A stretch of 64,000 nt of DNA, taken from Glycomyces salinus (GTDB taxonomy: Bacteria; Actinomycetota; Actinomycetes; Mycobacteriales; Micromonosporaceae). The notes beneath the pieces were generated by a model. The model was given only the letters and a program-made list of their open reading frames with translations. It had not been told where the DNA came from and did not search any database. A program made the position numbers and the translations under genes. The stretch spans positions 1 through 64,000 of the forward strand of contig NZ_JAELXW010000015.1 in the NCBI RefSeq assembly GCF_016428645.1, read 5' to 3'. Below, piece after piece: positions 2,863-28,216 of the stretch (within the stretch, counting starts at the first letter, position 1; each line of letters starts with the position of its first letter).

Positions 2863-3042
2863 CGTCAGACCTCCCATGTCGGCCCCCTTCCTGATCTCTC
2901 GATTCGTTCATGACCAGGACGGATCGGCGCTTCCAGTATGCGGCAACACGGGAGGGCGCGCCACCGTCCCGGACAGTCCAACGATCGAGGGATGAAAAGG
3001 TGACAAATCTTAGTCGTTTTGTCGAGAAGCCGACAGAACGCC

Positions 3043-6206: not shown

Positions 6207-6312
6207 CCTCCGATGTAGTACCCGGGTACCGCGCCTCGTGCTCCGGCACGAGGCGCGATCTCGTTCCGTGGTCCGACGCCCCCGGCCCGATGGAACGGAT
6301 AACCTTTACCGC

Positions 6313-6681
6313 ATGGTCCACGTAGGAGAATACGGCGCCGTCAACACTCCGGATGACGGCTTCCTCATCACCACCACGGAGAACATCCCCGGCCACGAGG
6401 TCTCCCAGGTCTACGGCGAGGTCTTCGGGCTGACCGTGCGAGCCCGCAACGTCGGTTCCGACATCGGCGCCGGACTCAAGTCGCTGGCGGGCGGCGAGCT
6501 CAAGGGCCTGACCAAGGCCCTGGTCATGGCGCGCGAGCAGGCCGTCCAGCGCATGATGGAGCAGGCCAAGACCGTCGGCGCGAACGCCGTGGTCATGATG
6601 CGGTTCGACGTCGGCGAGGCCCGCGGCATCGGGACCGAGGTCTGCGCCTACGGGACCGCCGTCACCGTCGTCAAGACGTAG
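6313..6681 (+). CDS. YbjQ/UPF0145 family protein
   Basis: A 122-residue protein of the YbjQ (UPF0145, putative heavy-metal-binding) family, a small fold that forms pentamers in solved members; function is not established. It shows FLITTTENIPGHEVSQVYGE, VRARNVGSDIGAGLKSLAGG, and GANAVVMMRFDVGE. ATG 6313 gives the standard N terminus. A TAACCT at 6300-6305 lies seven bases upstream and no Shine-Dalgarno is present, so the mRNA may be leaderless. Its 3' end overlaps the convergent mrp gene by 11 bases. Confidence 0.85.
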   Translation: MVHVGEYGAVNTPDDGFLITTTENIPGHEVSQVYGEVFGLTVRARNVGSDIGAGLKSLAGGELKGLTKALVMAREQAVQRMMEQAKTVGANAVVMMRFDVGEARGIGTEVCAYGTAVTVVKT

Positions 6682-21791: not shown

Positions 21792-22844
21792 TCAGAGCGC
21801 GATCGGGCCTTTGGCCCCAGGGGGATCGGCCTCTCCGCTCGGCTGGGCATAGCCCGCATCCTCGGGTGAATCGGCATAGGGCGGCGGCTGCGCATACCGT
21901 TGGATCCGATCGGCGAGGTCGTGTCGGCCGTTCTCCCGGTAGAGCCTGGAGAGGACCACGCCGATGGCAGCCTGCCCCGCCTCGTCGGCGTCCAGGAGGA
22001 ACTGGTCGAGCAGCTGTCCGTCGGTGGCGGCGGCGGGATCGGGCGGCGGTTCGTCGACGCCGCCGCCCATGCCGTGCGGCTCATCGAGGACGATCGGTTC
22101 CGGTTGTGCCGGTTCGGTCTCCGACTCCTCGGTGTCCTCCTCCCGGATCGAGGCGGCCGGGATGCGGTGCGGATTGAACCAGCGGTCCAGCTCGGTGAAG
22201 AGCTGCGCCTTCAGGGGTAGTTCCTCCAGGCGGTCCTGATGCTGGGCGAACCACCAGATGGTCGCGATCTTCGGGTCGTCGAAGATGCGACTGAACGAGC
22301 GAATCCGGCGCTCCAGAATCCAGTTCTCGTGTCGTTCGGACTCCCAGGCGAGTTTGCGCTGCTGGATGCTGCGGACCAGCTCCAACTCCGCGGGCTTCGC
22401 CTGTACCGATACGCACCGTCCCCAGTACGTGACTCTGGCGCCATGCAGCGTGCGGCGCCGCATCAGCTGCTCGGTTATCCGGTAACTGAGCTGCTCCTGC
22501 TCCGTCAGTGCCAGGCGAGCGGAGATCTCCCGCACGGTCGAATAGAGGTCCTGTTTGAGCAGTGCTTCCAGGTCGTCGGCCGTCTCTCCCGGGCCGCTCG
22601 GCTCGAACTTGATGTGCAGCACGCAGCGGAACTCGAGTTCCGGCTTCTCACTAGGCAGATTGAGGTGGAGGTTCCGGCTCGCTGGCGGCGGAGGCTCGGG
22701 CGCAGGTTCCGGCTCGGGCTCGGGCTCTTCGAACACGGGCGGAGGGTAGGAGGGCACCGTATAGGGCTCTTGCCGTCCGAGCCCGAACAGCCGTCTCCAG
22801 AAGGAGGGCCGCCTCGCGGACTGCCCGTAGTAGAAATCGGTCAT
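21792..22844 (-). CDS. Unknown protein, third gene of the cyclase-like/NTPase-like operon
   Basis: A 350-residue protein I do not recognise. Residues 8-28 are basic and aromatic (RRPSFWRRLFGLGRQE), suggesting peripheral membrane contact. A Pro/Glu-rich linker runs to about residue 57. Residues 68-190 form an alpha/beta then helical domain (FRCVLHIKF, ISARLALTEQEQLSYRI, RVTYWGRCVSVQAKPAE, charged helices) that faintly recalls SPFH/band-7 proteins. The end is acidic and Pro-rich. ATG 22844 overlaps the preceding stop by ATGA, so it is probably made together with the NTPase-like protein. Confidence 0.75.
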   Translation of the reverse strand: MTDFYYGQSARRPSFWRRLFGLGRQEPYTVPSYPPPVFEEPEPEPEPAPEPPPPASRNLHLNLPSEKPELEFRCVLHIKFEPSGPGETADDLEALLKQDLYSTVREISARLALTEQEQLSYRITEQLMRRRTLHGARVTYWGRCVSVQAKPAELELVRSIQQRKLAWESERHENWILERRIRSFSRIFDDPKIATIWWFAQHQDRLEELPLKAQLFTELDRWFNPHRIPAASIREEDTEESETEPAQPEPIVLDEPHGMGGGVDEPPPDPAAATDGQLLDQFLLDADEAGQAAIGVVLSRLYRENGRHDLADRIQRYAQPPPYADSPEDAGYAQPSGEADPPGAKGPIAL

Positions 22845-24937
22845 GGCGTCGGTTCCTTGTACTCGAGGAGATTGATCATGATTCGGGTGCTGAGGTCGGC
22901 CAATCGCCCTTCGGGGCGTCGCGTCAAGAGGACGCGGGCGGTCTGCGCGAGCTGGCCTGTGCTTCGGAAGTCCCGCGCGGCCGCCGACACCAGGTGGTCG
23001 GCCATCGCGTCGCCTATGTCGAAGTCGAGGTCGGCGGCCGCCTCCAGCCAGGTCGTGGCCGCGACTCGGACCGCCGCGGGATCGGTCGTGGTGAACAGTC
23101 GCTGCCAGAAGGTCGCGACATGTCCGCTGGGATCGGTGTTCAGGGCGTCGGGGTCGCGTCTGAGACGGAGGCGGTACTCGTCGCGTCCGTAGACGGACTT
23201 GACCATTCGCGGCACGAGTTCCCGCAGTCGAGACGAGCCGGCCGGATCCAACCAATCGGTGAACCGGATCAACAGGATTCGCGGACGGTAGTGGAGCGAC
23301 ACATTCGACACGCCAATGAGGATGGCCTGCCTGACCCGCTCGTCGTCGCATTTAGCCAAGTGCTGCAAGCGGTACAGAGCGTTGCGGGGGAACCGCTCCG
23401 CATAGGCGGGGTCGCCGCAGACGTTGGCAACTATGAGTTGCTTGTGGACCGGAACGTTCGCGGCGTACGCGGTGTCCCAGAGGTGTCTGCGGATCTCTCG
23501 GCCGATGTTCGCATCCAGGGCGGCCTGCAGCAGCAGCTGGCTGCCGAGCCCGATGTCCTTCGCCAGGTGCCTTGAGACCGAATCGGTGATCAGGCCGGGG
23601 TCACGAACCGCGGAGGCGAGCGAGACGAAGGAGACGATCGCCCTGCCCGGGCTGCGATCGTCCAGATACTTGGGAAAGCGCAGCAGCTCCAGGAACCAGG
23701 ACTTGAGGTGGTCCCGCCAGTTCGGGTACTCCTTCCAGACGTGCGAGACCACGGCCTCGGCGTATCCCGGATTGCGGAAGACCGACGCGGACGGGTCGAA
23801 CACGTCGGTGAGCTGGCCGAACTCCGCGGTCAGGCTCGGCTGGTTCAGCAGGTGTCGGTGTTCCTCCTCGTATTCGACGAGTTCGAGAAATCGTTTGGCC
23901 GCATTCACGATCGACTCCTTTGGCGCGGTTTCGAGTACCGCGGCCGCCATTAGGAGCGCCCGGCTGGCGGCGTCCAGCCTCTGTCCGAGCCGTTCGTTGA
24001 GGTCGCGGTGCCAGTCGGACAGGCCGTCCCGGACCCGCTCGTGCAGGTGGCCCATTGACAGGCCCGGGCCGGCGCTGCCGATGATCTCGGCCAACCGAGC
24101 GATTCTCGGAGGCCAGGATTTCGCGAGTTCGTCCCGGAATCCCTGGTGTCCGAGGACCGGTCGCAGGTAAGTCGCGCCGTCGGAGCCCTGAAGGTACCTG
24201 GTGAGCACCGCTTCGCCGCTCGGCCGCCGGAGTCTGAACGCGGTTCCTGTCACCGACTCCGCGGCCGGGTCGAAGTGCTCGTGTCCCAAGGCGATGATCA
24301 GATGACTGCGCTGGGATTGAACGGACGCCTGAATCTGCGGGAGCCGGCGAACCAGCTCCCTTCCCAGGTCCCGATCGACGCTGGCGTCCAGCAGCATCAA
24401 GGTCGGTTTCTCCAGATCGTCGACCGACCGCTCGAGGTCGCGGACACTGTCGGCGAACACCCGTGCGATCTCCATCGGGCGGCGCCGAACGAACTCGACC
24501 GCTCGGTGCTTGGCCGCGGTGGACAGACCAGAGCGGGGCTCCCCGCACAACACCAGAATGCCGTGCTCCTTCAGAACGCCGAGGTGTTCCTCTAGCTGCG
24601 GAGGCGGCACCACCAGAGCGAGTTCGCGCTCGATGGACTCCGCATCGGTCGCGTACCGCCGCTGCCCGTTCAGGTCGCGGAGGATCTGATCGAAGTTCTC
24701 GGGCGGCTCGACGAAGTTGAAGGTGTTGTTGTCCCGGCCGGCCCTGAGGCTGTCGCGTCCGATCCGTGCCGCGCCCGGCGCTGGGGAGGCTACGGCCGGA
24801 GCGGTCTCGTTGGCCTCCGTGTCTGCTTCCTCGCGCGGGGAGGGGGGTTTCGGGGCCGCCGCTCCCTCCCCGCGAAGGCCCGACCAACTGCGCGGGAGAC
24901 CGTAGGACTCCGGTGCCCTGTCGGGAGCGTCGGTCAT
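22841..24937 (-). CDS. NTPase-like protein (STAND-like) with degenerate P-loop
   Basis: A 698-residue protein. Residues 1-57 are low complexity; residues 59-75 carry a Gly/Arg/Asp then Asn-rich motif (IGRDSLRAGRDNNTFNF) also found at the C terminus of the upstream protein. Residues 95-260 look like a P-loop NTPase: ILVLCGEPRSGLST at 127-140 as Walker A with Leu138 in place of the Lys, and TLMLLDAS as Walker B. The rest is helical with repeat-like character. This resembles STAND-type conflict NTPases in layout only. It overlaps both neighbours by ATGA. Confidence 0.72.
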   Translation of the reverse strand: MTDAPDRAPESYGLPRSWSGLRGEGAAAPKPPSPREEADTEANETAPAVASPAPGAARIGRDSLRAGRDNNTFNFVEPPENFDQILRDLNGQRRYATDAESIERELALVVPPPQLEEHLGVLKEHGILVLCGEPRSGLSTAAKHRAVEFVRRRPMEIARVFADSVRDLERSVDDLEKPTLMLLDASVDRDLGRELVRRLPQIQASVQSQRSHLIIALGHEHFDPAAESVTGTAFRLRRPSGEAVLTRYLQGSDGATYLRPVLGHQGFRDELAKSWPPRIARLAEIIGSAGPGLSMGHLHERVRDGLSDWHRDLNERLGQRLDAASRALLMAAAVLETAPKESIVNAAKRFLELVEYEEEHRHLLNQPSLTAEFGQLTDVFDPSASVFRNPGYAEAVVSHVWKEYPNWRDHLKSWFLELLRFPKYLDDRSPGRAIVSFVSLASAVRDPGLITDSVSRHLAKDIGLGSQLLLQAALDANIGREIRRHLWDTAYAANVPVHKQLIVANVCGDPAYAERFPRNALYRLQHLAKCDDERVRQAILIGVSNVSLHYRPRILLIRFTDWLDPAGSSRLRELVPRMVKSVYGRDEYRLRLRRDPDALNTDPSGHVATFWQRLFTTTDPAAVRVAATTWLEAAADLDFDIGDAMADHLVSAAARDFRSTGQLAQTARVLLTRRPEGRLADLSTRIMINLLEYKEPTP

Positions 24938-25968
24938 GCCCCTTCACCTCGGTTCCAGAAGGGAGCGCGCCCGTCACCTCGAGCGTTGTTCTGGTCACGG
25001 CCGACATTGTTGACCGTGGCGTCGCCCTCGGCCGTGATGGAGTCCCGGCCGATGTTGGTGGTGGACCGGTCCTGGCCGCTGTGGTTCTGCGAGTGGTCGT
25101 CCTGGCGGACGTCCCCGCCGGCTATGGCAGCGCTCTCAGCGACGTTCCCGGTGCGAAGGTTTTGGGCTCGTGCGTCCCCGGAGACGTCGCCGATGCCGAC
25201 ATTCTGGCCGCCGGTCGCCGCGGAGTCCGAGCGGCTCAGGCGCTCGGCCTTGAGGAGGCGGTCTTCCAGGTGCTCGCCAGGGGATGCAGCGTCGGTCTCC
25301 TCGGAACCGGGCAGGTTCGCCAGACCGAAGCGCAGGAGGTCGCCCGAGGGTGTGGGCACGTGTACGAACGCGTTGGTGGTGTAGTCCTTCTCCTCGATGA
25401 ACACCGAGACCCGGACGAACTCGGAGTCCCTCACCCAGAGCGGGTCGGGGCCGATCACGTCGGAGATGACCCGGGGGCTGACTGCGAGGGACAGAAACGT
25501 CGCCTCGGGGTCGGACTTGTCCAACAGGACGCGGTTGGGCAGGCAGTCGGCGATACGGACGGCATCGATGATGGGCTGGTTCGGGGCGATGTCGATCCGG
25601 TCGTCATCGAGGGCCTTGACGGGGCCGACCGAGATGCCCATCCGCATCCGGACGTTCAGTCGGTTGCGGTGGTGGAGCTCGCGGAGCTGGCCCTGCAGCG
25701 CCACCGGGATCCGGTCGACGATGTCGCGGAGGTGCGCTTCGTCGAAGCCGGCGACGATGCCGTCCCCGGTGTTCTGTTCGAACACCTTGGCCGCCCAGAC
25801 CTCTCCGAGATCAGTTCGCGTGAAGGATTCCTCGATCGCGTCGCGGAACGCGACGGCGACCTCGTTGCGCTGGGTGTCCGTGTACGAACTGAACTTCCTT
25901 ATGTCGACGGCCATGATCACGAGGTTGCGGGTGGTCGTGTGCTGTTGGGGGATGCTTGCGGTGTCCAT
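24934..25968 (-). CDS. Class III nucleotide-cyclase-like protein with Gly/Asp-rich C-terminal repeats
   Basis: A 344-residue protein. Residues 15-150 match a class III cyclase homology domain: MAVDIRKFSS with Asp22, FEQNTGDGIVAGF with Asp69, and MRMGISVGPV. Both metal Asp residues and Arg138 are kept. The substrate-defining Lys appears as Gln65 and the transition-state Asn as Ile134, so it may be inactive or use another nucleotide. From about residue 250 the chain becomes Gly/Asp/Asn-rich, ending in NIGRDSITAEGD and NNVGRDQNNARGD. ATG 25968 has AGGAG six bases upstream; the open frame to 26052 would cross the palindrome. Confidence 0.75.
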   Translation of the reverse strand: MDTASIPQQHTTTRNLVIMAVDIRKFSSYTDTQRNEVAVAFRDAIEESFTRTDLGEVWAAKVFEQNTGDGIVAGFDEAHLRDIVDRIPVALQGQLRELHHRNRLNVRMRMGISVGPVKALDDDRIDIAPNQPIIDAVRIADCLPNRVLLDKSDPEATFLSLAVSPRVISDVIGPDPLWVRDSEFVRVSVFIEEKDYTTNAFVHVPTPSGDLLRFGLANLPGSEETDAASPGEHLEDRLLKAERLSRSDSAATGGQNVGIGDVSGDARAQNLRTGNVAESAAIAGGDVRQDDHSQNHSGQDRSTTNIGRDSITAEGDATVNNVGRDQNNARGDGRAPFWNRGEGA

Positions 25969-26003
25969 TGACACTCCTACGGTCGGTCGAGTTGTAGCCG
26001 ATG

Positions 26004-26009
26004 TGTCAA
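26004..26009 (-). promoter_or_regulatory. Perfect -35-like TTGACA upstream of the cyclase-like gene
   Basis: Read on the minus strand this is TTGACA, 36 bases before the start codon at 25968. I do not find a good -10 at 17 bases, so the promoter is uncertain. The palindrome at 26034-26053 lies just upstream, where an activator would sit. Confidence 0.35.
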
Positions 26010-26033
26010 TCCTCAGGGGGCGCAATGGATTAC

Positions 26034-26053
26034 GATGTCCAAAGTTGGACATC
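26034..26053. promoter_or_regulatory. Perfect 9+2+9 palindrome, probable Crp-family operator
   Basis: GATGTCCAA, a two-base centre AG, then TTGGACATC. Both arms match fully over nine bases. It lies in the 106-base gap between crp (26075) and the cyclase-like gene (25968). Length and dyad symmetry suit a Crp/Fnr dimer. It is not GC-rich and has no T tract, so a terminator is unlikely. Confidence 0.65.
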
Positions 26054-26074
26054 GCAGGCTATGACGTGCGGCAC

Positions 26075-26749
26075 TCAGGATCCGGTGGCGCGGCGGGCCA
26101 GGGCCGAGCGGTCGAGCAGTTCGATGCGGGACTGGCCGATGCGGACGGTCCCCGACCGGCGCCAATGCGCCAGCAGGCGGGTGACCGAGCTCCTCGATAC
26201 GCCGAGCGAGTCCGCGACCTGCTGCTGCGTCATAGGGACCCTGGAAGCGTCCGGGGCCGAGGCGGCGCTGAGCACTTCGAGGAAGAGTTGGGCCATCCGT
26301 TGCTCCGTGTTGAGGTTGGCGGCGCGCCAGACTCGTTCCCCCACTTGGCGGGCCTTGGCGAGCATGTACCGCCGGAGCGGTTCGGTCAGGCCGCGGTGTT
26401 CGAGGGCGCTCTCGAACTTCTCGCCCGCAAGGGCGGACGTCTCACAGTCTTCCAGCGCCCACACCGATGCCATGTGGGTGCCGTGGTCCTGTTGGGCGTA
26501 TTCACCCAGCAGGTCGCCAGGGCCGCGGATCGCCACGAGGACCTCGTTGCCGTCGGATTCGGTGTACACGACGCGAACGCGGCCGGCGAGGAGCGCGTAG
26601 ACCACCTCGCCGCGGGCGCCCTGGTCGAGAAGGTGGCCCCCGGCCGGAAACGAGCGCCGCCGACCGCGCCGGACGAGGTCCTGCCATTGGGTCGGGGCGA
26701 TCATCGCTTGGAATCCGCGGAGATGAGGGCGCGGTGCCGTGGTGTTCAC
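26075..26749 (-). CDS. Crp/Fnr family transcriptional regulator
   Basis: A 224-residue regulator with an N-terminal cyclic-nucleotide-binding fold (residues 20-125: FPAGGHLLDQGARGEVVYAL, then GDLLGEYAQQD) and a C-terminal helix-turn-helix (MTQQQVADSLGVSRSSVTRL). The phosphate-binding cassette keeps GE, but the Arg that grips cAMP appears to be Met (HGTHMASVWA), so the ligand may be something other than cAMP. GTG 26749 has AGGA seven bases upstream. It lies just upstream of the cyclase-like operon on the same strand, with the palindrome between them. Confidence 0.88.
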   Translation of the reverse strand: MNTTAPRPHLRGFQAMIAPTQWQDLVRRGRRRSFPAGGHLLDQGARGEVVYALLAGRVRVVYTESDGNEVLVAIRGPGDLLGEYAQQDHGTHMASVWALEDCETSALAGEKFESALEHRGLTEPLRRYMLAKARQVGERVWRAANLNTEQRMAQLFLEVLSAASAPDASRVPMTQQQVADSLGVSRSSVTRLLAHWRRSGTVRIGQSRIELLDRSALARRATGS

Positions 26750-26822
26750 CCGACATTCCTAACGGCTCGCGATGGGACTGTCTGTCGTCATCTCGACACT
26801 TGAGGCATGAGTCGTATTCATG

Positions 26823-26920: not shown

Positions 26921-27664
26921 TCAGTTTCGGGTGGTCAGCCAGGCTTCGAAGGTGGTGGGGGCCAGGCGGGCCGGTTCGGCCGGGAGGAGGACTTCGCCGG
27001 ACATGCCGGTGCCGAACGGTCCCGACCAGGTCGGGACGAGTTCGACGTCGCGGCCGCGCGCTCGGAGGGTGCGGCGGGCCATGTCGACCAGGTCCTGGGG
27101 TTCGGGCCCGGCCACGTCGGGGTGGCGGCCCCGGGGTCGGCCCACCGCGACCTCGGCGAGGATCTCGGCCACGTCGTCCGGCGCGATCGGCTGCACCAGC
27201 AGCGGCGCGATCTCGGCCGCGCCGTCTCGCTCGGTCCAGCCGACGACCATCTCGGCGAAGTCGTGGAACTGGGTGACCGGGACGATCGTCCACGGCACCG
27301 GGCCGGCCTCGATCAGGCGCTCCTGCTCGCGTTTGCCTTCGTAGTGGGCGTTGCCGTCGGCGCGGTGGATGCCGACGATCGACAGCAGCACATGGTGGCC
27401 GACGCCGGCGCGGGCCTCGGCCTCCAGGAGGTTGCGGGTGGCCGCTCCGAAGTAGGCGGCGGTGCTGTCGCGGTCGCCCGCCGGGGCGTTGGTGGCGTCG
27501 ACGAGGGCCTCGACACCGGTCAGCGCCCGGTCCAGGCCCTCGCCGGTGTGCAGGTCGACGCCCAGTGAGCGGCTGATGCGGACCACTTCGTGGCCCTCGC
27601 GCTCGAGGACCTCGACGGTCCGGGCGCCGATGTTGCCGGTGGCGCCTGCGATCGCCAGTCGCAT
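26921..27664 (-). CDS. NmrA-like NAD(P)-binding protein (atypical SDR)
   Basis: A 247-residue Rossmann-fold protein of the NmrA/atypical SDR type. The dinucleotide-binding start is MRLAIAGATGNIGARTVEVL (GxxGxxG at residues 7-13), followed by VEALVDATNAPA and HHVLLSIVGIHRAD; no YxxxK active site is seen, so it may be a redox sensor or use another mechanism. GAGGAG lies upstream of ATG 27664. The Rrf2 regulator gene is divergent with an 81-base shared promoter region carrying a dyad, so it is probably the regulator's target. Confidence 0.82.
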   Translation of the reverse strand: MRLAIAGATGNIGARTVEVLEREGHEVVRISRSLGVDLHTGEGLDRALTGVEALVDATNAPAGDRDSTAAYFGAATRNLLEAEARAGVGHHVLLSIVGIHRADGNAHYEGKREQERLIEAGPVPWTIVPVTQFHDFAEMVVGWTERDGAAEIAPLLVQPIAPDDVAEILAEVAVGRPRGRHPDVAGPEPQDLVDMARRTLRARGRDVELVPTWSGPFGTGMSGEVLLPAEPARLAPTTFEAWLTTRN

Positions 27665-27698
27665 GATGGTGCTCCTCTCGGTGGGTGGTACCGCGACA

Positions 27699-27727
27699 AT
27701 ATAACGGACTAAAAAGATCCGCAATAT
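27699..27727. promoter_or_regulatory. Probable Rrf2 operator in divergent promoter
   Basis: An imperfect dyad, ATATAACGGA, nine-base spacer, TCCGCAATAT, with eight of ten arm positions paired. A second smaller dyad ATATC-TTA-GATAT lies at 27724-27736. The minus-strand TATATT (27703-27698) may be the -10 of the NmrA-like gene and overlaps the dyad, which suits repression. Confidence 0.55.
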
Positions 27728-27733
27728 CTTAGA

Positions 27734-27739
27734 TATGAT
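27734..27739 (+). promoter_or_regulatory. -10 element of leaderless Rrf2 gene
   Basis: TATGAT, near consensus, ends six bases before the GTG at 27746 with no Shine-Dalgarno between. The small dyad at 27724-27736 overlaps it, suggesting autoregulation. Confidence 0.55.
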
Positions 27740-27745
27740 GGACCC

Positions 27746-28216
27746 GTGAAGTTGCCCGCAAGCACCGAGTGGGTGTTGCACTGCGCCACCTCGCTCGCCC
27801 AGCTCGACGAGCGCGCCTCGGCCTCGACGAACCAGCTGGCCGAGTACTTCGACCTGCCGCGGGCCTATCTCGCCAAGCAGCTCAAAGCCCTGGTCAAGGC
27901 CGGAGTGCTGACCGCGACCACCGGCCCGAGGGGCGGATTCCGACTCGCCCGCCCTCCCGCGGAGATCTCCCTGCTCGACATCGTCGAGGCCGTCGACGGC
28001 GGGGCCGACCCCTACGAATGCCGGGAGATCCGCCAGCAGGGCAGGGGCGCGCTCTCGGCCGAGGCGTGCCGCCACACCTGCGTCCTCGCCGCGAAGATGG
28101 CCGAAGCCCATGAGGCGTGGAGGAGCAGCCTCGCCGGAGTGACGCTCGCCGAGATCCTGGACCAGATCCCCGACTGGGCCCCGGCGCGGACCCGCTCGAT
28201 CCTCGGCGGCGGGTGA
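27746..28216 (+). CDS. Rrf2 family transcriptional regulator
   Basis: A 156-residue Rrf2-type winged-helix regulator. The HTH region (STNQLAEYFDLPRAYLAKQL) and the wing TGPRGGFRLARP are typical. Cys92, Cys108 and Cys112 form a cluster that could bind an Fe-S centre or act as a thiol switch, as in IscR/NsrR relatives, though the spacing is not the IscR spacing. It is divergent from the NmrA-like gene and probably controls both. The start is GTG 27746. Confidence 0.9.
   Translation: MKLPASTEWVLHCATSLAQLDERASASTNQLAEYFDLPRAYLAKQLKALVKAGVLTATTGPRGGFRLARPPAEISLLDIVEAVDGGADPYECREIRQQGRGALSAEACRHTCVLAAKMAEAHEAWRSSLAGVTLAEILDQIPDWAPARTRSILGGG

What the first reader, a model, noticed from the sequence alone, without database searches (positions are those of the whole stretch)
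21792..26749. Crp / cyclase-like / NTPase-like / unknown-protein locus as a candidate undescribed signalling or conflict system
Seen: four minus-strand genes, with the three after crp overlapping by ATGA. The first encodes a class III cyclase homology domain with a repeat-rich tail, the second a large P-loop-like protein with helical C terminus, the third an unknown protein with a basic aromatic N terminus. A Crp/Fnr regulator precedes them. Known: cyclic-nucleotide signalling (Crp; Pycsar and CBASS defence) and STAND NTPases both work in conflict systems. Inferred: a self-regulated sensing module in which cyclase-like and NTPase-like proteins signal to each other and perhaps the membrane. It does not match Pycsar or CBASS architecture.
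Basis: partly seen in the sequence, partly recalled or inferred. Interest (0 to 1): 0.82.

Follow-up and report, generated by a model that had tools for sequence, protein, structure and literature searches.

The report
Cyclase operon wired by paired motifs
An operon found in many filamentous soil bacteria couples a cyclic-nucleotide-making enzyme to an immune-receptor-like protein through matching, prion-like tail motifs, which may show how bacteria switch on nucleotide alarm signals.

Summary
The four genes and both ATGA overlaps are real, in a Glycomyces-group actinomycete. The order crp, cyclase-like, P-loop/STAND-like, gene 4 is conserved: of 81 fetched loci with the cyclase, 63 have the P-loop gene in tandem and 52 all four genes. 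The cyclase's "repeat-rich tail" is the key. In most loci its C-terminus matches the N-terminus of the P-loop protein next door, and the motif changes from locus to locus (cognate mean Z 7.03, non-cognate 0.70, four controls near 0). That is the published signature of NLR/effector amyloid-signalling pairs, here with a cyclase as effector. In one bacterial family the motif also heads NB-ARC proteins. A PycTM (Pycsar effector) gene lies on the same strand in 14 of 81 loci. Crp-like operators precede crp, the cyclase, and the window genome's only PycTM gene, on another contig. Best reading: the receptor templates cyclase tails, the cyclase dimerises, and its product acts through Crp and a membrane effector. 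Amyloid, product and phage defence are untested. The window's own motif pair is weak (Z 2.5), and the window locus has no PycTM.

The parts
26783..26798 (.). Operator-like inverted repeat TGTCGAGATGACGACA upstream of crp
   Evidence: such perfect repeats upstream of crp in 8 of 52 loci against 0.55 expected
26075..26749 (-). crp: Crp/Fnr-type regulator, 224 aa
   Evidence: His instead of Arg in the phosphate-binding cassette (HMASV, 26462-26476), as in 10 of 67 relatives
26036..26051 (.). Operator-like inverted repeat TGTCCAACTTTGGACA between crp and cyc
   Evidence: perfect TGNNN-N6-NNNCA repeats in 20 of 52 crp-cyc intergenic regions against 0.4 expected
24934..25968 (-). cyc: class III cyclase-like domain plus motif-bearing tail, 344 aa
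25342..25926 (-). Cyclase homology domain (about residues 15-209; metal Asp22 and Asp69, Arg138, Gln65 at the usual Lys position)
24985..25056 (-). C-terminal paired motif of cyc, residues 305-328 NIGRDSITAEGDATVNNVGRDQNN
22841..24937 (-). ntp: STAND-like P-loop protein with helical C-terminal part, 698 aa
24710..24763 (-). N-terminal paired motif of ntp, residues 59-76 IGRDSLRAGRDNNTFNFV
24518..24544 (-). Degenerate Walker A GEPRSGLST (no Lys)
   Evidence: K in 7, R in 37, L in 10 of 63 homologues
21792..22844 (-). gene 4: 350 aa, basic-aromatic N-terminus, possible SPFH-like core
   Evidence: homologue in 58 of 63 loci

Best explanation
A receptor-gated cyclic-nucleotide switch. (1) A STAND-like receptor (ntp) senses an unknown cue through its helical C-terminal part and oligomerises [inferred]. 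(2) Its N-terminal motif templates the matching motif at the C-terminus of the cyclase encoded next door, as amyloid signalling motifs do between NLRs and their effectors [pairing shown by sequence; templating inferred]. (3) Tail assembly brings cyclase domains together; class III cyclases build their active sites in dimers, so clustering turns synthesis on [known for the class; inferred here]. The base of the product is unknown; the usual Lys is Gln in the window. (4) The product is read by the operon's Crp, acting at TGTCS-N6-SGACA-type sites before crp and before cyc [sites shown; ligand inferred], and, where present, by a PycTM membrane effector in the operon or elsewhere in the genome [genes shown; response inferred]. 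Gene 4 is a membrane-side scaffold or effector [the weakest step].
For: Module: of 81 loci with cyc, 63 have ntp in tandem; of those 63, 57 have crp on the same strand, 58 a gene 4 homologue, 52 both; 43 of 63 cyc/ntp junctions are ATGA. Pairing: cognate mean Z 7.03 against 0.70 non-cognate; cognate best of 63 in 30 loci and in the top 5 in 47; it beats the partner of the nearest relative in 46 of 63 (p 9e-5); four controls have cognate means between -0.04 and 0.30. Thinned to 20 clusters below 45% identity: rank 1 in 15, permutation p <= 5e-5. A profile made only of one family's paired motifs hits 10 of 20 genomes and, outside the module, the N-terminal side of 8 and the C-terminal side of 3 of the 11 proteins examined; NB-ARC is over cut-off in L218, L220, L227. 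Catalytic residues 82, 82 and 83 of 84. Crp phosphate-binding Arg 54 of 67. Operators 20 of 52 against 0.4. PycTM on the same strand in 14 of 81 loci, all 14 over the Pfam cut-off; in 20 cyc-bearing genomes there are 23 PycTM genes, 11 inside the fetched loci. The window genome's single PycTM gene has a matching site 134-149 bp before its likely ATG. EAD1-cyclase-TIR proteins in two relatives scanned.
Against: The window's own pair is weak: Z 2.5, rank 10 of 63, raw-score rank 36. 17 of 63 cognate pairs do not beat the nearest relative's partner. No PycTM in the window locus; window Crp has His for the phosphate-binding Arg. Walker A Lys in only 7 of 63; nSTAND3 also rings in 14 of 14 control genomes. 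SPFH for gene 4 rests on E 0.013 for the long form; the short form, to which the window belongs, gave 0.26, and Foldseek gave nothing at E <= 0.001. The cyclase model failed (mean pLDDT 31). No amyloid predictor was available. No defence island in relatives, no phage record, no viral contig. The operator definition was chosen after seeing the sites.
Confidence: 0.5

Rival explanations
1. The paired motifs are a docking device, not amyloid: tail and N-terminus fold together as a beta-strand or beta-helix contact that holds cyclase and P-loop protein in a standing complex, and the P-loop protein regulates the cyclase allosterically.
For: Pairing shows only that the two ends recognise each other; Glycomyces tails carry several motif-like stretches; most P-loops look unable to drive a classical STAND switch.
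Against: The position (effector C-terminus, receptor N-terminus), the G/N/Q/V-rich make-up of the paired stretch (G 19.5%, N 8.0%, L 1.3%) and the occurrence of one version before NB-ARC domains are those of amyloid signalling motifs.
Confidence: 0.27
2. Same wiring, but the job is developmental or stress regulation in mycelial bacteria rather than phage defence; Crp output is the main output.
For: Crp is in 57 of 63 tandem loci while PycTM is in 14 of 81; in the genus 8 of 10 cyc-bearing genomes have it within about 3 kb of mazG, a fixed site; 33 operator-like sites in the genome against 3 for the reversed pattern; no defence island.
Against: PycTM, EAD1 and TIR are conflict-type partners; patchy presence (10 of 22 genomes in the genus; 89 of 393 in the class); copies on Streptomyces plasmids.
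Confidence: 0.3
3. In Glycomyces the cyclase domain is a pseudo-enzyme or binds rather than makes a nucleotide, and Crp answers another ligand.
For: Window: Gln65 for Lys, Ile134 for the transition-state Asn, Crp His for Arg, P-loop Leu for Lys.
Against: Both metal Asp and the Arg are kept in the window and in 82, 82 and 83 of 84 family members; Asn is replaced in most of the family (28 of 84 keep it), and PMC4886424 (section 4, part 1 read) reports Ile there in cyclase-like proteins and activity without Asn in Rv1900c.
Confidence: 0.18
4. The motif match is an artefact of low complexity or of a recent duplication across the gene junction.
For: Tails are low in complexity; some alignments run through Pro/Ala linkers.
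Against: Shuffled-tail Z-scores, non-cognate pairs and four controls; the effect holds between clusters below 45% identity.
Confidence: 0.03

Closest known systems
NLR/effector amyloid signalosomes of filamentous bacteria (BASS motifs; PMC7889193, PMC8086366, PMC12261475: passages read)
   Same: Adjacent or overlapping genes; a short motif at the N-terminus of a STAND-type protein and the C-terminus of its neighbour; many motif families; in f29 genomes one version also precedes NB-ARC domains.
   Different: The effector is a cyclase instead of Bell, TIR or CHAT; Crp and gene 4 belong to the module; most P-loops lack the Walker A Lys. The word cyclase occurs 0 times in the main texts of these three papers.
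Pycsar (PycC with PycTM or PycTIR; PMC11224242: passages read)
   Same: Class III-type cyclase; PycTM genes in 14 of 81 loci.
   Different: No PADLOC PycC hit for the window cyclase; a receptor-like protein, Crp and gene 4 are added; no PycTM in the window locus; product unknown.
Actinobacterial NTP-dependent conflict systems (Kaur et al. 2020, PMC7159879: passages and section 33 read)
   Same: The same kinds of parts are combined there: cNMP cyclases, Band-7 domains, EADs, STAND NTPases, a CRP-like regulator.
   Different: Those systems are built on MoxR-vWA, EACC1-caspase or peptide processing; the order crp-cyclase-P-loop-gene 4 was not in the passages I read. Source-data tables were not read.
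EAD1-cyclase-TIR proteins of other actinomycetes (L113, L138)
   Same: Cyclase domain found by the same profile; Pfam EAD1 and TIR_2.
   Different: One polypeptide; no tandem P-loop gene of this family detected in those loci.

Membership tests
Pycsar | PycC-type cyclase by profile | tested here: not met
   PADLOC: no family up to E 1 for the window cyclase
Pycsar | PycTM or PycTIR effector in the locus | tested here: not met
   Not met in the window; met in 14 of 81 family loci. One PycTM gene on another contig of the window genome
Pycsar | cCMP or cUMP as product | not testable with these tools
   Needs biochemistry
BASS-type NLR amyloid signalosome | Shared motif, receptor N-terminus and effector C-terminus, adjacent genes | tested here: met
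   Family level; the window pair alone is weak (Z 2.5), its closest relative L029 has Z 5.1
BASS-type NLR amyloid signalosome | Motif also found on bona fide NLRs | tested here: inconclusive
   Shown for the f29 motif profile only (10 of 10 f29 and 0 of 10 f31 genomes hit; NB-ARC); not tested for the Glycomyces motif; no BASS profile was at hand
BASS-type NLR amyloid signalosome | Bell, TIR or CHAT effector | tested here: not met
   The motif-bearing partner is a cyclase domain protein
BASS-type NLR amyloid signalosome | Amyloid formation and cross-seeding | not testable with these tools
   Needs peptides
STAND NTPase (nSTAND3) | Profile score over cut-off | tested here: inconclusive
   26.0 bits against 27.2 by hmmscan; 29.3 bits in the genome scan; the profile also rings in 14 of 14 control genomes (7 over cut-off)
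STAND NTPase (nSTAND3) | Intact Walker A | tested here: not met
   No Lys in the window; Lys in 7 of 63 homologues
Class III nucleotidyl cyclase | Pfam PF00211 over cut-off | tested here: not met
   11.6 bits against 21.9
Class III nucleotidyl cyclase | Remote profile match and metal/transition-state residues | tested here: met
   Ma1120 E 6.5e-4; Asp, Asp, Arg in 82, 82, 83 of 84; the fold model failed
SPFH/Band 7 (gene 4) | Profile or fold match | tested here: inconclusive
   No Band_7 hit by Pfam; hhalign long form E 0.013, short form 0.26, antisense controls 0.71 and 0.94; model pLDDT 61-84 for residues 41-150 with b-b-a-a-b-b-long-a order; Foldseek nothing at E <= 0.001
Crp/Fnr regulator | cNMP-binding domain plus Crp HTH | tested here: met

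The most novel reading that the evidence does not exclude
Prion-like templating directly controls second-messenger synthesis: an NLR-type receptor seeds a matching motif on a class III, perhaps pyrimidine-specific, cyclase and so forces it into active dimers; the product drives a Crp feedback loop and a PycTM membrane effector in the operon or elsewhere in the genome. This would be a receptor-gated branch of Pycsar-like immunity and one answer to how such cyclases are switched on.
Probability: 0.42. Interest if true: 0.88.

Novelty: new variant of a known kind. Interest (0 to 1): 0.77.

Why it matters
How an infection or stress switches on a Pycsar-type cyclase is open: PMC11224242 (passages) reports AnPycC as a monomer in solution and a dimer in crystals and says that whether oligomerisation activates PycC needs further study. 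Here is a gene module whose sequence predicts such a device: a receptor-like protein with a motif matched, locus by locus, to the tail of a cyclase. It also extends bacterial amyloid-type signalling from killing effectors to an enzyme that makes a diffusible signal. Both ideas can be tested with short peptides and one purified cyclase.

Tried and rejected
Rejected: motif pairing as low-complexity noise (controls). Rejected: ordinary cAMP housekeeping cyclase (tandem P-loop gene, variable site, PycTM in part of the loci). Rejected for the genus: defence-island location; 55 of 78 ORFs of at least 150 aa, from eight mfd-mazG intervals without cyc, gave only mad1-like and Csa3-like hits in PADLOC at E <= 1e-5. 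Not supported: prophage origin.

Led nowhere: AlphaFold of the cyclase on two sequences (mean pLDDT 31); Foldseek of gene 4 (best E 0.39; FliL and tunnelling-fold proteins among weak hits); nSTAND3 search of genomes, too unspecific; profile-profile tests of gene 4 against Band_7 first run on wrongly oriented translations and repeated with both orientations. The first run of the pairing script stopped on an empty sequence after its first result (mean Z 7.20, rank 1 in 27 of 63) and was rerun in full.

Rows set aside: of 63 tandem loci, 57 have crp on the same strand and the operator count used the 52 with an intergenic stretch of 30-400 bp. One locus was left out of the ntp 301-450 control (n 62) and two of the gene 4 controls (n 61). 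Two PycTM-like hits on the opposite strand (L047, L108) are not counted. Two of 32 motif hits had no locus and were not examined. Loci for searches were chosen by me from the cyclase hits (best and middle scores), not at random. The 20 genomes were chosen by me and bear cyc.
Full report
What is there. Four minus-strand genes stand as described. The closest named relative is Glycomyces tenuis DSM 44171. Its contig has the same length (451,510) as the contig of same-genus genome G013, so the window belongs to the Glycomyces genus group. Crp has a cNMP-binding domain and a Crp HTH. The second protein is a remote class III cyclase: Pfam fails (E 0.21), but a 15-member profile matches Ma1120 at E 6.5e-4 over part of its length. 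Across 84 members the metal Asp positions hold Asp in 82 and 82 and the Arg in 83; the transition-state Asn is kept in 28; at the usual Lys position Gln is commonest (39), and Lys is not among the six commonest residues. The third protein is a P-loop, nSTAND3-like protein with a degenerate Walker A. The fourth had no family hit.

Conservation. The cyclase family occurs in 26 of 101 relatives and in 89 of 393 genomes sampled from the class, 25 of 123 genera. In 81 loci (window plus 80 fetched) the P-loop gene follows the cyclase in 63; of these 57 have crp on the same strand, 58 a gene 4 homologue, and 52 both. The cyclase/P-loop junction is ATGA in 43 of 63. The remaining 18 loci hold other arrangements: cyclases of 450-560 aa, some with EAD1 and TIR_2 (L113 and L138), a cyclase next to a true Band_7 protein (L119), and a crp-cyclase set with other downstream genes (L035, L098, L101, L102).

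The tail. In each tandem locus I compared the last 60 residues of the cyclase with the first 150 of the P-loop protein by local alignment, scored against shuffled tails. Cognate pairs average Z 7.03, non-cognate 0.70; Z is above 4 in 73% against 4.8%. The cognate partner is the best of 63 in 30 loci and in the top five in 47, and it beats the partner of the nearest relative in 46 of 63 (p 9e-5). Four controls (P-loop protein 301-450, cyclase 61-160, gene 4 first and last 150) give cognate means of 0.11, -0.04, 0.30 and -0.02. In L085-L088 the motif lies deeper in the tail and pairs well when the whole tail is used (raw scores 85-137). With one locus per cluster below 45% identity (20 clusters) the cognate is first in 15, permutation p <= 5e-5. 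Examples: GNVFSGDVTTGEGGTVNAFGGDQHNN with GNVFHGEVSTGEGGTVNAFGGDQHNN (L031); GVTISGDGAQSAFGNTVGGD with DVTITGDGAQSAFGNTVSRD (L103). The window pair, NIGRDSITAEGDATVNNVGRDQ with IGRDSLRAGRDNN, is weak on its own (Z 2.5, rank 10); its relative L029 scores 5.1, rank 1. A named plasmid of Streptomyces sp. NBC_00055 shows the same kind of pair by eye.

Link to NLR motifs. [quoted passage not shown] passages). A profile (A7) built from twelve paired motifs of family f29 was run on 20 cyc-bearing genomes: 10 of 10 f29 genomes hit, 0 of 10 f31 genomes. Of 32 listed hits, 19 are the module itself. I examined 11 of the other 13: eight carry the motif on the N-terminal side of longer proteins and three near the C-terminus of shorter ones. 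NB-ARC is over its cut-off in L218, L220 and L227, just under it in L219; L213 and L215 had no NTPase hit, L223 TPR repeats. So at least this version of the tail motif is one that NLR-type proteins carry. For the Glycomyces version this was not tested.

Crp loop. Between crp and cyc a perfect TGNNN-N6-NNNCA inverted repeat occurs in 20 of 52 loci against 0.4 expected from shuffles; 8 are TGTCC, 5 TGTTC, 4 TGCCC, 3 others. Upstream of crp it occurs in 8 of 52 against 0.55. The test pattern was fixed after one search had shown such sites. In the window they are at 26036-26051 and 26783-26798. The window genome has 33 TGTCS-N6-SGACA sites against 3 for the reversed pattern. Which protein binds them is inferred. 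The phosphate-binding Arg of Crp is kept in 54 of 67 relatives but is His in the window and nine others.

Pycsar effector. A PycTM gene (PF18967) lies on the same strand in 14 of 81 loci, all 14 over the Pfam cut-off; in several it overlaps the stop of gene 4 by a few bases. In 20 cyc-bearing genomes of my choice there are 23 PycTM genes, at most three per genome, and 11 of them lie inside the cyclase loci fetched earlier, where random placement would give far less than one (my arithmetic from locus and genome sizes). The window locus has none. The only PycTM gene of the window genome is on another contig (30.9 bits), with an exact TGTCG-N6-CGACA site 134-149 bp before its likely ATG; if translation began at the upstream GTG the site would lie in the gene. 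With 33 sites in 5.4 Mb such a placement has a chance of roughly 0.1% (my arithmetic, after the fact).

Gene 4. Short and long forms are homologous (hhalign 3e-17). Some relatives show a hydrophobic N-terminal helix (by eye); the window protein instead starts basic and aromatic. Two long forms carry a weak vWA match. An SPFH-like core is possible: long form against Band_7 E 0.013 with an antisense control of 0.71, but the short form gave 0.26. The AlphaFold model has moderate confidence for residues 41-150, and Foldseek found nothing at E <= 0.001.

Genomic setting. In the genus 10 of 22 genomes have cyc, 8 of the 10 within about 3 kb of mazG. The mfd-mazG gap ranges from 0.7 kb (G003, no cyc) through 7.2 kb (window) to 18 kb (G015): a variable site. 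It is not a defence island by PADLOC. Relatives of the cyclase are on Streptomyces and Embleya plasmids, in no phage record and no viral contig found.

Literature. Nine searches of the held library were answered. None of the listings or passages read describes this module. Supplementary tables and subscription papers were not seen.

Reading. Receptor motif and cyclase tail look like one amyloid-type signalling pair; the predicted consequence is cyclase dimerisation, with output through Crp and, in part of the family, PycTM. Shown here: module, pairing, operators, PycTM linkage. Inferred: templating, catalysis, ligand, defence. Compared with known kinds this is a new combination, filed as a new variant and not as a member of Pycsar or of BASS signalosomes, because a defining feature of each was tested and not met in the window.

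Noticed in passing
window 26945-28216: An NmrA/SDR-like gene (-) stands head to head with an Rrf2-type regulator gene (+), between the operon and mazG; names by eye.
   Followed up: no
window 3020-3035: A third exact TGTCS-N6-SGACA site (TGTCGAGAAGCCGACA) in the window; 33 in the genome against 3 for the reversed pattern suggest a regulon of some Crp-like protein.
   Followed up: partly
L113, L116, L118, L137, L138, L111: Related cyclase domains in EAD1-cyclase-TIR proteins (Pfam for L113 and L138; the others by eye), some in adjacent pairs.
   Followed up: partly
L035, L098, L101, L102: crp-cyclase sets whose downstream gene is a 518-577 aa protein without Pfam hit instead of the P-loop gene; in L035 cyclase tail, that protein's C-terminus and a 134 aa protein's N-terminus share an IGxxG-type motif.
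   Followed up: partly
L115, L126, L127: Gene 4 of these loci is a long form; weak vWA matches in L126 and L115, and a canonical GKT Walker A in the P-loop protein of all three.
   Followed up: no
L241 (NZ_CP108260.1): Streptomyces plasmid with PycTM-crp-cyclase and the P-loop gene interrupted by an IS701 element.
   Followed up: partly
L119: Cyclase relative adjoining a true Band_7/SPFH protein (3.9e-14).
   Followed up: no
window 6240-6328: ARAGORN reports a tRNA with an odd two-base anticodon.
   Followed up: no
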